Source: Psychrobacillus vulpis
GTDB lineage: Bacteria > Bacillota > Bacilli > Bacillales_A > Planococcaceae
Length of the DNA stretch: 64,000 nucleotides
Reading direction: 5' to 3'
Assembly: GCF_006861825.1 (NCBI RefSeq)
Contig: NZ_VDGI01000006.1
Span: 1 to 64,000 of the forward strand
The notes beneath the pieces are model-generated. The model had not been told where the DNA came from. It was given only the letters and a program-made list of their open reading frames with translations, and searched no databases. Made by a program: the position numbers and the translations under genes. Every line of letters begins with the position of its first letter. Position 1 is the stretch's first letter. Positions 1 to 55,957 of this stretch are shown here, in pieces.

Positions 1-7
1 AAAAAGG

Positions 8-46
8 CAATTTTTCGTTCAAAATCGAACGAAAAATTGTCTTTTT
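8..46. terminator. Bidirectional intrinsic terminator hairpin
   Basis: A perfect 13-bp stem (8-20 with 27-39) closes a 6-nt loop. It has A-rich sequence on the left and T-rich sequence on the right, so it could terminate transcription on both strands. The gene it serves lies outside the window to the left. Confidence 0.75.
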
Positions 47-81
47 TGATGGCGAGTATATAAAAAAATTAAAAGCTAAGG

Positions 82-306
82 TTTTTCAGTGCCCTCCGGA
101 AAGGGAGCCGTTTCAACGATTTTCTTATTAATTGGACTATTGGACAACCCTTCTGGCAACGTAGAATTATAGGAACTTTTTCAGTGCCCTTGAGCGAAGC
201 GAAGGAGGAGGCTCGTCGCTCGCACGCGGAAAGCGAATGCCAAAGCGCTAAATTCTCGTAGCGGCTATTTGTAGAAAATTTATTGGAATGACACTCTTTC
301 AGCGCC
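82..306. repeat. Degraded mosaic of two interspersed repeat families
   Basis: Positions 82-96 match one terminus of the inverted-repeat element seen at 8675-9197 (TTTTTCAGTGCCCTC). Positions 97-150 match one end of the 116-bp palindromic repeat (type A), including TTTCAACGATTTTCT and the flank reading TTGGACAACC. A second terminus of the first type lies near 178-192. It is followed by the right half of the type B element (193-306), whose end is altered to ACACTCTTTCAGCGCC. The block is clearly more GC-rich than its surroundings and encodes nothing. The rest of 1-580 shows only AT-rich sequence. Confidence 0.8.
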
Positions 307-580
307 TTTACAAGTCTTTTCTAATCCTAGTAAAACACTATAAACACTGGGTTAATAGTACATCAATTTTATATACTTTCTTATCTTTCAAAAAAAGAAT
401 TGCTCTATAGTCTTATGACTTAGTAGCAACTTGCGCATTTCTTGTTAGGAAGACTATCAATTAGGTATAACTATCAATTCCTCTTTTAATATTTGTCAAG
501 TAAAATGGGTGATAATAACAAATGGTATTTGACAATTTTGTGAACTCGGTGAATAATATATAGAAGAGAGGATGAGTGAA

Positions 581-8576: not shown

Positions 8577-8674
8577 CCCTCCAAACTACTAAACTTATAA
8601 TTAGTATATAAAGTGAGATGAGAGATTATTACCTATTAATAAAATGGGCTGTTGAAGACTCCTATTCTTTCAAA

Positions 8675-9197
8675 GAGGGCACTGAAAAACCAACGTTTTT
8701 ATCATTTCAATCTTTATAAATGAAAAAATAAGGCACTTTTTGCTCGTTATTGAACAAAAAGTGCCTTATTATTTTACTTATTCTTGCTAGTTAATCGCCA
8801 TGAATGGGCTTAAATTAAGGGTTTCTTGGTTAGAAATCATTTTGCACACCACCATTAGTTAGTCACTCTATTATAAACGAAGAAGGACTTAGAAGAATAG
8901 GTGGATGCTAGTTGATTGGAGAGGAAGGCGGCGACTCCAGCCGGAATAGCAATGTTTTCTGCACCGAAAGCGAAGCGGCAGGTGCATGAGCTGAAGACCC
9001 TGGACTGAGCGTAGCGAAATTAATTTTTGCGACGAGCTTGCGCAGGAGCAAGGGAAGTGGCTGAAGCCATGCCGGCGGAAAGCGTCCGCCTGGAACGGAA
9101 ATCAACGATTTTCCAATAAAAAGAGAGTATGTGAACAACAACTTGTCATTCACCATACTCTCTATGAAATCTCTTGGAGGACTTTTTCAGTGCCCTC
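8675..9197. mobile_element. Non-autonomous inverted-repeat element (type B termini), 523 bp
   Basis: The element is bounded by perfect 15-bp inverted repeats: GAGGGCACTGAAAAA (8675-8689) and TTTTTCAGTGCCCTC (9183-9197). Immediately outside are identical 8-bp direct repeats CTTTCAAA (8667-8674 and 9198-9205), as expected of a target-site duplication. Inside are a perfect 16-bp hairpin (8727-8742 with 8755-8770), a GC-rich type C palindromic repeat (about 8912-9112) and another hairpin (9122-9131 with 9154-9163). There is no transposase reading frame. The same termini recur at 23556-23848 and 55670-55899. Duplications of 8-9 bp would suit mobilisation by an IS256-like transposase, which is inference. 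Confidence 0.8.
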
Positions 9198-9288
9198 CTT
9201 TCAAATGCATGGAATCTTTTAGAAAGTATAAGTTACTAGAAGATGGTGGCGAAATAGCTGATTTCATAGTTAGCTACGTCTTATAAAA

Positions 9289-15137: not shown

Positions 15138-15163
15138 CTAATAAAGGGGCTGTCCATTAAGTA

Positions 15164-15281
15164 AGAAAATCGTTGAAACGGCTCCCTTTCCGCGGGCGTT
15201 GCCTCAGCCTCCTCGCTTTCGCTGTGGGGTCTTCGGCCAACGCTACTCTCGCAGGAGTGTCGCCTTTTTCAACGATTTTCT
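15164..15281 (-). repeat. Interspersed palindromic repeat, type A
   Basis: This 118-bp GC-rich unit is bounded by the inverted repeat AGAAAATCGTTGAAA/TTTCAACGATTTTCT. The interior, read on the minus strand, runs through GGCGACACTCCTGCG, a GAAGACCCC segment and CGGAAAGGGAGCC. Other copies are at 30888-31003, 23499-23917 (interrupted) and as a fragment at 97-150. Conserved outer flanks (TGTCCA on one side, TAGAAATGAAAAAGTA on the other) suggest the mobile unit is longer than the palindrome. The unit is non-coding. Confidence 0.8.
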
Positions 15282-15412
15282 AGAAATGAAAAAGTATTTG
15301 TATTAAAAAATAGACTGTATTTCATAGATAATGAACGAACAATAAATCGTTGAATCCAATTTGAATATCAAATGAATCATCATATCCATCTCCTCGGTGT
15401 TATTAGTGATGA

Positions 15413-15535
15413 TTGGAGCGGAGGGCGACGACTCCTGCGGGAATAGCGTGAGTCTTGAGACCCTGCAGGAAGCATAGCGACCGAAGAGGCTCAAGCTACG
15501 CAAGCGGAAAGCGTTCCCCCGCAGTGGAAATCAAC
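15413..15535 (+). repeat. Interspersed GC-rich repeat, type C
   Basis: The copy starts TTGGAGCGGAGGGCGACGAC and ends near GTGGAAATCAACAG. It is complementary within itself and resembles the repeats at 8912-9112, 55291-55460 and 55606-55957. An apparent 66-codon minus-strand frame here is only a by-product of the repeat. The whole stretch 15138-15785 holds repeats and hairpins but no gene. Confidence 0.7.
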
Positions 15536-23417: not shown

Positions 23418-23498
23418 GATGTTAATATCTTGGCTTGTACTGAGCGGTCCCTGAAAAAGTCGAGTTGCAGAAGAGGTTGTCCAATATTCCAATAAATA

Positions 23499-23917
23499 AG
23501 AAAATCGTTGAAACGTCTCCCTTTCCACGGGCGTAGCCTCAGTCTCCTCGCTTCGAGGGCACTGAAAAAGTGTCATTCAAATAAATTATCCACTAAATAG
23601 TCCTAAGAGAATTTAGCGCTTTGGCATTCCGCGGGCGAGCGACGAGCCTCCTCGGGCCAACACGATGTTGGTCATGAAGGCGTTGCCTCAGGAAGAGGCG
23701 CCCTTAGCCTTCCTTCCACTCGCTACGTGCGAGGTCTCGTCTGTCTCGCTTTCCCGCAGGAGTCTCATGCGTCGCTCTAAATTCTTTTAAATGGAATAGA
23801 GAAAATAGTTCCTATAAAAATAATAATTTTGAGTTTTTCAGTGGCCACCTCCCTTCGCTCCGGGGTCCTCGACTAACGCTATTCCCGCAGGAACGTCGCC
23901 TTTTTCAACGATTTTCT
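23499..23917 (-). repeat. Type A palindromic repeat split by a type B element
   Basis: The left part (23499-23555) begins AGAAAATCGTTGAAA and the right part (23849-23917) ends CAACGATTTTCT. Together they rebuild the same 118-bp unit seen at 15164-15281. Between them lies the element at 23556-23848. A further relic of a type B terminus (GGTCCCTGAAAAAGTCGAG) lies near 23446-23464. The stretch 23378-24053 contains no gene. Confidence 0.8.
23556..23848. mobile_element. Non-autonomous type B element inserted in a type A repeat, about 293 bp
   Basis: The left terminus AGGGCACTGAAAAA and right terminus TTTTTCAGTGGCC match the family seen at 8675-9197. The 9-bp flanks CTCGCTTCG (23547-23555) and CTCCCTTCG (23849-23857) differ at one base, consistent with an aged target duplication. 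Inside is a nested palindrome between AAGAGAATTTAGCG and the CTCTAAATTCTTTT end. It carries a segment of about 70 bp (CTCGGGCCAACACGATGTTG onward) also present in the type C repeat at 55291-55460. No protein is encoded. Confidence 0.78.
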
Positions 23918-23985
23918 AGAAATGAAAAAGTAGCGCATACAGCGTGCTTATCCGGACTCAAAGTCATAATTCAAATTTATAAGAA

Positions 23986-30695: not shown

Positions 30696-30742
30696 GAGCC
30701 ATAAATGAATGAATCGATTCTACATCTTATGGCTCAATTTTA
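30696..30742 (+). terminator. Terminator after the coiled-coil gene
   Basis: GAGCCATAA pairs perfectly with TTATGGCTC (30696-30704 with 30727-30735), followed by AATTTT. Confidence 0.7.
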
Positions 30743-30887
30743 AAAGACAAGAAAGTATAAAAATACAATAAGTAATTTTGTTTTCTCAAGCTTACCGCTC
30801 GCTTTCCACGGGGCGAGGCGCTTCGTCGCTACGCTGTGGGAAATGAAAAACTGTCTATTTTTTAAGATTAATATTTTATTCATTTCT

Positions 30888-31003
30888 AGAAAATCGTTGA
30901 AAAGGCGACACTCCTGCGGGAATAGCGTTAGCCGAAGACCCCGCAGCGCAGCGAGGAGGCTAAGGCAACGCCCGCGGAAAGGGAGCTATTTCAACGATTT
31001 TCT
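30888..31003 (+). repeat. Type A palindromic repeat, intact copy
   Basis: AGAAAATCGTTGAAA (30888-30902) and TTTCAACGATTTTCT (30989-31003) bound a GC-rich interior (GGCGACACTCCTGCGGGAAT, then GAAGACCCCGCAGCGCAGCG, then CGCCCGCGGAAAGGGAGC). Fragments of another repeat with CGCTTTCCACGGGGCG lie at about 30790-30840. The surrounding 30602-31148 contains no gene; open frames here follow the repeat sequence. Confidence 0.85.
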
Positions 31004-31148
31004 TATCTATGGAGCTATTGAACAACTTCGTCTGGCAAAGCTTTCGGAAGACGGACAACCATTAATGCCTCTAGATAACTACCCATTTAGTAAAAAGTAA
31101 GACAAGTATGGTGTTTCATGGCAATTGAATTTAGCTAATTAACCCATA

Positions 31149-31253
31149 ATCGGATAATAGATTGTGATAATCGGATAATAACTACAAATAATCGGATGAC
31201 ACCACTGAAAAATCGGATAATAACTAGTAAATATCGGATAATACCTCTACAAG
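31149..31253. repeat. Array of five units with exact 21-bp period (core ATCGGATAAT)
   Basis: ATCGGATAAT starts at 31149, 31170, 31212 and 31233, with ATCGGATGAC at 31191, giving an exact 21-bp step each time. The 10-base core is nearly invariant and the other 11 bases vary freely. The array ends one base before a terminator hairpin. In-frame TAA and TGA codons argue against a coding repeat. Related arrays occur at 37125 and 45372. Confidence 0.9.
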
Positions 31254-55290: not shown

Positions 55291-55460
55291 TTTAGGAATC
55301 GCTCCAGGCGGGCGCTTTCCGCGGGCTCGCGCCAAGCCTCGGGCCAACAGGATGTTGGTCATGAAGGCGTTGCCGCAGGACGCGGCGATCTTAGCCTTCC
55401 TACTTATGCCTGCGCTGTCTCGCTGTCCCGCAGGAGTCGCCGCCTTCCGCTTATTTTTAA
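55291..55460 (-). repeat. Type C GC-rich repeat carrying a shared 70-bp segment
   Basis: The outer arms (CCAGGCGGGCGCTTTCCGCGG and CCCGCAGGAGTCGCCGCCTT) are mutually complementary. The middle (CTCGGGCCAACAGGATGTTG through CTTAGCCTTCCT) is nearly identical to part of the type B element at 23556-23848. The GC content is far above the surroundings. The 55187-56183 interval has no gene. Confidence 0.75.
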
Positions 55461-55605: not shown

Positions 55606-55957
55606 CAGGGCCCGCCACGGAGACTCCTGTGGGAATAGCTTGAGCTGAAGACCCCGGAGGAACGGCAGTGAGGCCACTGAAAAACTCGAGTTAATATTTT
55701 TGTAGGAACTATTTGCTGTATTTATTTAAGAGAATTTAGCGCGACGCATGAGACTCCTGCGTGAAAGCGAGACAGACGAGACCCCGCACGAAGGAGGAGG
55801 CTCGTCGCTCACCCGCGGAAAGCGAATGCCAAAGCGATAAATTCTCTTAACGACTATTTGATAGAAAATTTATTAGAATAACACTTTTTCAGTGGCCTCA
55901 ACGGCAGTGACGAGGAGGCTGAAGCCAAGCCCACGGAAAGCAAAGTGGCGGGCCCCG
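55606..55957. repeat. Type C repeat interrupted by a type B element
   Basis: GGGCCCGCCAC (about 55608) and GTGGCGGGCCC (about 55947) are the complementary ends of one palindromic repeat. Its middle is split by the element at 55670-55899. Removing that insertion and one copy of the AACGGCAGT duplication rejoins the two halves (GACCCCGGAGGAACGGCAGT to GACGAGGAGGCTGAAGCC). Confidence 0.8.
55670..55899. mobile_element. Non-autonomous type B element, 230 bp, with 9-bp target duplication
   Basis: The termini GAGGCCACTGAAAAA (55670-55684) and TTTTTCAGTGGCCTC (55885-55899) are perfect 15-bp inverted repeats. Directly outside are AACGGCAGT (55661-55669) and AACGGCAGT (55900-55908), a clean 9-bp duplication. 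The inner palindrome runs from AAGAGAATTTAGCG through GAGACTCCTGCGTGAAAGCG and GGAGGCTCGTCGCTC to CGATAAATTCTCTT. There is no coding capacity. Confidence 0.88.

What the first reader, a model, noticed from the sequence alone, without database searches (positions are those of the whole stretch)
8675..9197. Non-autonomous mobile element family with 15-bp inverted ends and 8-9 bp target duplications
GAGGGCACTGAAAAA and its complement bound 8675-9197, flanked by CTTTCAAA on both sides. The same ends bound 55670-55899 (flanks AACGGCAGT twice) and about 23556-23848 (flanks CTCGCTTCG/CTCCCTTCG). Sizes of 523, 293 and 230 bp without a transposase indicate MITE-like elements moved in trans. The 8-9 bp duplications are typical of IS256-like transposases (established for that family; the link here is inference).
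Basis: partly seen in the sequence, partly recalled or inferred. Interest (0 to 1): 0.75.

Follow-up and report, generated by a model that had tools for sequence, protein, structure and literature searches.

The report
Hairpin-targeting IS1182 mini-transposons
The window's short repeats are transposase-less passengers of an IS1182-type insertion sequence that tends to jump into DNA hairpins; many passengers carry such hairpins themselves, so copies pile up inside one another.

Summary
In detail: elements at 8675-9197, 23555-23848 and 55670-55899 have the stated ends and 8, 8 (one mismatch) and 9 bp duplications. The genome holds 353 such ends (control 1). The autonomous partner is IS1182-family, not IS256-like: a 492-aa transposase over the NCBIfam cut-off with such an end upstream. 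In 52 of 80 loci of Bacillales and other relatives, such ends with 7-9 bp duplications bound an IS-sized element. The 523-bp element is an internally deleted IS; the others are MITEs.

Beyond the finding: in 53 such insertions the flanks outside the duplication complement each other (429 of 636 cells; 276 on re-pairing), so this IS prefers hairpin or terminator loops and duplicates the loop. In the home genome 35 of 39 short elements sit in one conserved hairpin repeat, mostly at two recurring sites. That hairpin is also MITE cargo and part of some IS leaders, and its model matches 92 of 101 family genomes, some with few or no ends.

Hairpin targeting is published for IS1182-family IS1272, which deletes stem-loops without duplication. 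This is a new variant. Against a pure loop rule: the commonest home site (CCTTTCCG) is not a predicted loop.

The parts
1..96 (+). 3' end of an IS1182-family IS copy (terminator-like hairpin 1-46, right terminal repeat 82-96); the contig starts here, inside the IS
   Evidence: 12 places in the genome at 98-100% identity, at least 5 of them within 220 bases of a contig end; hairpin
97..191 (.). Rest of a type-2 hairpin MITE, interrupted at CGGAAAGG by that IS; its own terminal repeat at 177-191
   Evidence: D10
192..309 (.). Part of a type-1 hairpin element with a decayed end (11 of 15)
   Evidence: (D6)
8667..8674 (.). Target duplication CTTTCAAA, left copy
8675..9197 (-). 523-bp internally deleted IS1182: on the minus strand, left end, leader terminator-like hairpin, hairpin core region, promoter-like TATAAT, 17 transposase codons, 3' terminator-like hairpin, right end
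   Evidence: 88% identity over 406 bp to the IS leader in L033, 72% over 100 bp to the IS 3' end; translation MISNQETLNLSPFMAIN*; hairpins; promoter by eye
9198..9205 (.). Target duplication CTTTCAAA, right copy
15164..15281 (+). Uninterrupted type-2 hairpin (an intact landing site)
15431..15512 (-). Hairpin core, other subtype
23547..23554 (.). Target duplication CTCGCTTC, left copy (apex site of a type-2 hairpin)
23555..23848 (-). 294-bp type-1 MITE with Bacillaceae-1 module at its apex
23657..23723 (-). Bacillaceae-1 RNA (RF01690)
   Evidence: 66.1 bits, gathering 35
23849..23856 (.). Target duplication CTCCCTTC, right copy
23488..23932 (+). Type-2 hairpin into which 23555-23848 is inserted
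   Evidence: D4, D5, D8: 89-91% identity to 15153-15296
30910..30981 (-). Type-2 hairpin core
55661..55669 (.). Target duplication AACGGCAGT, left copy
55670..55899 (-). 230-bp type-1 MITE with hairpin core (55753-55823)
55900..55908 (.). Target duplication AACGGCAGT, right copy

Best explanation
The three elements are non-autonomous derivatives of a resident IS1182-family insertion sequence with ends GAGG(G/C)CACTGAAAAA. Its DDE transposase, made by complete copies, binds the shared ends in trans (inferred) and inserts copies with an 8-9 bp staggered joint (shown by the duplications). The preferred targets are DNA inverted repeats: in other genomes often terminator-like hairpins, cut so that the loop is duplicated and the arms stay outside (shown statistically; cleavage at an extruded hairpin is inferred). 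In this genome the main target is a high-copy conserved hairpin repeat that two of the MITE subfamilies and some IS leaders also carry. Elements therefore nest repeatedly, mostly at two positions of the hairpin. The element at 8675-9197 is an IS that lost all but about 17 codons of its transposase gene. Many full IS copies bring terminator-like hairpins near one or both ends, so insertion into a host terminator may replace what it breaks (inferred).
For: Partner IS: transposase over the family cut-off with an end upstream; such ends in all 15 fetched loci of the 17 IS1182 matches; 12 near-identical 3' ends, at least 5 within 220 bases of a contig end. Same ends and 7-9 bp duplications around IS-sized elements in 52 of 80 relatives' loci. 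Flank complementarity 429 of 636 cells against mean 276, maximum 307 of 200 re-pairings; about 14 of 53 per position at random sites. A-tract/T-tract signature 28 of 53 against 57 of 7,482 random sites. Predicted unpaired fraction 0.60 in the duplication and 0.19 in the 10 nt on either side, 0.53 and 0.53 at random sites. In at least 4 of the 53 (L121, L129, L130, L132) the flanks read, by eye, as the apex of the same hairpin core. Home genome: 43 of 50 pairs with duplication, and 35 of 39 elements up to 300 bp, inside the conserved hairpin. 27 occupied type-2 hairpins: 19 at hit positions 8-11, 8 at positions 35-42; both orientations, and 160-bp and about 240-bp elements at the same site; the tree needs 23 changes for 27 occupied. 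Strong hairpins inside the IS: 5' in 26 of 44, 3' in 22 of 44, both in 19 of 44; controls 4 and 6 of 176. Element 8675-9197 is absent between the same two genes in 6 of 6 sister species that could be scored.
Against: The commonest home site (CCTTTCCG; 22 of 39) is not predicted unpaired in the folded hairpin (mean percentile 0.43, expected 0.5), so loop choice alone does not explain it. In 25 home elements the flanks pair no better than re-paired ones (146 against about 139 of 350 cells), though many share one target, which weakens that control. Element 8675-9197 itself is not in an evident hairpin. About half of the strong ends in the sample (80 of 164) are not in a pair with a duplication. 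No complete IS is assembled in the home genome. 25 of 53 foreign sites lack the A/T-tract signature. Transposition was not observed.
Confidence: 0.85

Rival explanations
1. MITEs of an IS256-like (Transposase_mut) element.
For: 8-9 bp duplications; the genome does hold Transposase_mut matches.
Against: Those matches are 4 partial stretches on two contigs and none of their 4 loci holds such an end. The ends bound IS1182-family transposase genes in other genomes and lie beside them here.
Confidence: 0.02
2. The mobile unit is the hairpin repeat, amplified by an unknown route. IS1182 elements only use it as a safe intergenic site and acquired it by chance.
For: The hairpin model matches 92 of 101 family genomes, some with almost no IS1182 ends (G057: 0 ends, 40 matches). 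Hairpins with other outer stems are amplified in G057. 27 of 50 home hairpin cores have no recognisable end (12 of 15 or better) on either side.
Against: 9 of 50 cores are bounded by both ends (control 0.3%), and the core sits in the leader of several distinct IS1182 copies, always in the same orientation.
Confidence: 0.4
3. The clustering in hairpins is survivorship: insertions elsewhere were lost by selection, and the hairpins are simply tolerated intergenic DNA.
For: All evidence here is from surviving insertions.
Against: It does not explain two sharp positions within the hairpin, loop-centred duplication at differing terminator-like sites, or complementarity far above re-paired flanks.
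Confidence: 0.1

Closest known systems
IS1272 and TnSha1 of staphylococci (IS1182 family); PMC5678879, PMC4923244
   Same: Same transposase family as named by those authors; targets are inverted repeats and terminator hairpins without primary sequence consensus (abstract and passages read).
   Different: IS1272 deletes or replaces the stem-loop and leaves no duplication. Here the loop is duplicated and the arms remain, the product that Wan et al. draw only as hypothetical pathway c. The passages read do not describe MITEs of it.
Nested pneumococcal BOX, RUP and SPRITE elements (review PMC10969869, passages read)
   Same: Short elements, some terminator-like, that insert into one another.
   Different: Other elements and host; here the partner IS is IS1182-family and nesting is mostly at two defined positions of a conserved hairpin.
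Stem-loop repeat families such as Bhal-1 and Bhal-2 of Bacillus halodurans and Bcr1 (PMC2267715, passages read)
   Same: Bacillus-group stem-loop repeats in tens of copies.
   Different: No sequence comparison was made here; the passages read do not link them to IS1182.
Bacillaceae-1 RNA (RF01690; PMC2864571, table row seen)
   Same: Present inside element 23555-23848 and at the apex of other hairpin repeats.
   Different: It is also abundant in genomes with few of these ends (matches in 72 of 101 family genomes), so it is cargo or target here, not a defining part.

Membership tests
IS1182 family (autonomous partner) | Transposase scores over the family model's curated cut-off | tested here: met
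   NF033551: 366.9 bits, cut-off 270; DUF772 and DDE_Tnp_1 domains
IS1182 family (autonomous partner) | Terminal repeats shared with relatives | tested here: met
   GAGG(G/C)CACTGAAAAA-like ends around IS-sized elements in 52 of 80 relatives' loci; ISfinder could not be consulted
IS1182 family (autonomous partner) | Complete copy with both ends in the home genome | tested here: inconclusive
   5' part with the full gene at the end of C23; 3' parts at the ends of other contigs; assembly breaks
MITE | Short, no transposase gene, inverted ends, target duplications, ends shared with an IS | tested here: met
MITE | Moved in trans | not testable with these tools
   Needs a transposition assay
IS1272-type stem-loop replacement | Stem-loop deleted, no target duplication | tested here: not met
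   7-9 bp duplications with the arms retained
IS256 family | Transposase_mut gene between these ends | tested here: not met

The most novel reading that the evidence does not exclude
A self-amplifying landing-pad system. The transposase recognises hairpin-shaped DNA, and the MITEs carry a conserved, covarying hairpin that is itself a preferred target. Each insertion therefore adds new targets, and this feedback drove the burst seen here (353 ends, against 0-13 in the eight congeners searched).
Probability: 0.3. Interest if true: 0.7.

Novelty: new variant of a known kind. Interest (0 to 1): 0.5.

Why it matters
It links a high-copy class of intergenic hairpins, including a catalogued RNA family (Bacillaceae-1), to a specific transposon family. 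It supplies many natural examples of the loop-duplication product that Wan et al. only proposed for structure-targeting IS1182 elements. It makes a testable model for how an IS can spread with little harm: it lands in terminators or its own hairpins, and many copies bring terminator-like hairpins along.

Tried and rejected
IS256 partner: rejected.

Bacillaceae-1 RNA as a defining part of the MITE: rejected. It lies between two ends in 6 of the 30 loci fetched out of 34 matches (the locus at a contig edge, L049, was mis-centred by the script), and it is abundant in genomes with few ends.

All insertion sites as hairpin loops: only partly upheld. The CCTTTCCG site fails the unpaired test, and home-genome flanks hardly exceed re-paired flanks in simple complementarity (25 elements).

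Hairpin-bearing IS leaders as one clade: rejected on the transposase tree (5 changes, 4 forced by starred branches; AU p about 2e-42). The group was named after a first tree, which weakens the test, and gains cannot be told from losses. One search used 46 of the 60 transposases; the 14 dropped were near-duplicates, truncated or frame-broken, had little upstream sequence, or had no ends found. Hits in L121 and L132 lay in the target outside the IS and were relabelled; L130, likewise, was among the dropped.

How stand-alone hairpins in other genomes move: in 40 fetched copies, alignments read by eye showed no duplications. The four G055 copies do have IS1182-like ends. Unresolved.

Literature: searches (listings only, apart from the papers named) showed no title or abstract start describing IS1182-derived MITEs in Bacillaceae; the library holds open-licence papers only. 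Two reviews by Siguier et al., looked up by DOIs recalled from memory, are not held.

Full report
Observation. All three elements are present with the stated ends and duplications, with small coordinate corrections: 23555-23848 is 294 bp with an 8-bp duplication carrying one mismatch. The motif is far above chance in the window (14 matches against 2.24) and in the genome (353 ends against 1 control). The home sample was the window, 400 kb of contig C1, and 45 short stretches around the places on C2-C12 that one search listed (100 places on C1-C12 in all), together 538 kb. In it 65 of 153 converging pairs carry an abutting 8-9 bp duplication; with shifted flanks 28 of 22,032 do.

The autonomous partner. 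The IS1182 model finds 17 stretches in the genome. The best is a 492-aa open frame over the curated cut-off near the end of contig C23, with an end of this type upstream. The 15 stretches fetched all have at least one such end (up to 2 mismatches) in their locus of about 3 kb. The 3' end of the IS, which is also the first 96 bases of this window, occurs at 12 places at 98-100% identity, at least 5 within 220 bases of a contig end (C55, C66, C22, and C3 at both ends), as expected for a multicopy IS that breaks a draft assembly; two of the 12 face each other on C4 and may belong to a MITE. The best 80 of 248 relatives, from named Bacillales and a few other Bacillota (one record is titled Pseudomonas), were fetched at 66-81% identity. 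In 52 of these 80 loci a pair of such ends with a 7-9 bp duplication bounds an IS-sized element. The IS256 guess is not supported.

Element types. The 523-bp element at 8675-9197 matches the IS leader over 406 bp at 88% and the IS 3' end over 100 bp at 72%. Between them only MISNQETLNLSPFMAIN and a stop remain of the transposase, so it is a deleted IS. The other elements read fall into a 160-bp type without a hairpin core, a type 1 of about 230-241 bp, a type 2 of 212-230 bp, and three type-1 forms of 294-301 bp with Bacillaceae-1 RNA at the apex. Types 1 and 2 each hold a long imperfect hairpin with a shared core but different outer stems.

Target choice in other genomes. 53 insertions in 52 loci had both ends, a 7-9 bp duplication, 12-nt flanks and distinct flanks; other loci were dropped. 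One of the two in L124 lies beside, not around, the query's transposase match. Outside the duplication the flanks pair with each other: 429 of 636 cells, against a mean of 276 and a maximum of 307 when right flanks are dealt to other insertions (200 shuffles). This excludes a mere symmetric consensus as the whole cause, though a partial one exists (C-rich left, G-rich right, then A and T tracts). The A-tract/T-tract pattern of bidirectional terminators occurs in 28 of 53, against 57 of 7,482 random sites. Folding puts the duplication in the loop and the neighbours in the stem (0.60 and 0.19 unpaired; 0.53 and 0.53 at 530 random sites). In L121, L129, L130 and L132 the flanks read, by eye, as the apex of the hairpin core described below. 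Loop-only duplication is what Wan et al. (PMC5678879; abstract and passages read) list as pathway c. The IS1272 that they and Furi et al. (PMC4923244; passages read) studied deletes the stem-loop. Both cite Siguier et al. for palindromic targets in the family; I could not read that source.

Target choice in the home genome. Of 50 pairs with a duplication, 43 lie in the conserved hairpin (core-model match at E up to 1 within 30 bases of the site); 11 of the 50 are longer than 300 bp and 4 of those share an end with a shorter one. Of the 39 up to 300 bp, 35 lie in the hairpin. Among type-2 hairpins in the sample 69 are empty and 27 occupied, at hit position 8-11 (19) or 35-42 (8). Of the 15 elements of 160-162 bp at the first site, 4 lie one way and 11 the other, and 4 elements of 237-240 bp use the same site. 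The hairpin sequences are nearly all distinct (95 of 96), and the tree needs 23 changes for 27 occupied copies, so most look like separate events; the tree rests on a model of 106 positions and is weak. The 17 elements outside the CCTTTCCG site behave as loop insertions (mean percentile 0.80); the 22 at that site do not (0.43). I cannot say what makes that site attractive.

The hairpin. In an alignment of 29 copies chosen from several genera, 9 of 20 predicted pairs show double-sided changes, mainly in columns 38-41 with 110-113. Against 500 shuffles none reached the observed paired cells (93.6%, mean 86.8), double-changed pairs (9, mean 4.2), double-changed cells (44, mean 12.1) or covariation score (0.202, mean 0.086); further pair types were not unusual (158 of 500). 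Slid partners gave at most 56% paired. The structure came from the same alignment and the copies are related, so this is support, not proof. Whole outer stems also differ between subtypes while staying palindromic. The covariance model R1 matches 92 of 101 genomes of the family (at most 42 candidates scored per genome, no control genomes in this search), including some with almost no IS1182 ends. The core also lies inside the leader of several IS1182 copies, on the transposase strand in all 14 leader hits judged to lie inside the IS, one of them weak and several from one species, seemingly between a leader terminator and a TATAAT-like promoter (by eye). It is thus wider than this MITE burst. 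Whether IS1182 helped to spread it, or only exploits it, is open.

Burst. The eight congeners have 0-13 ends and the next highest family genome has 78, against 353 here. The 523-bp element is missing between the same two genes in all six sister species where both genes were in the locus; of the other 12 congeners, two matched but could not be scored and ten had no match.

Mechanism, shown and inferred. Shown: common ends, partner transposase gene, duplications, hairpin location, repeated use of two positions, hairpin cargo. Inferred: mobilisation in trans, recognition of extruded hairpins or cruciforms, and replacement of host terminators by the IS's own. Strong hairpins (stem of 12 or more) lie at the 5' side of 26 of 44 and the 3' side of 22 of 44 distinct IS, both in 19, against 4 and 6 of 176 control windows.

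Noticed in passing
window 55344-55410 and 23657-23723: Bacillaceae-1 RNA (RF01690) sits at the apex of several different hairpin repeats; 34 matches in the genome and matches in 72 of 101 family genomes. It looks like a module of repeated hairpins rather than a stand-alone RNA gene.
   Followed up: partly
window 30742-31022: An Rfam match to the Staphylococcus aureus sRNA tsr24 (51.3 bits, gathering 50) covers a type-2 hairpin repeat, hinting that tsr24 is related to such repeats.
   Followed up: no
L095 14467-14985: A type-1 MITE of 519 bp carries an internal insert with TGTACATT-like ends and its own hairpins (by eye); it looks like a second, different non-autonomous element.
   Followed up: no
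L259-L278 (G057): A congener with no IS1182 ends has many near-identical hairpin copies whose outer stem varies by paired changes (GTTACGAGCGG/CCGCTCGTAAC and GTTCCGAGCGG/CCGCTCGGAAC). What moves them is unknown.
   Followed up: partly
window 1-96: The contig begins inside an IS copy; several contigs of the draft genome end at this IS.
   Followed up: yes
window 31148-31248: Short imperfect tandem units around AATCGGATAATA (D7).
   Followed up: no
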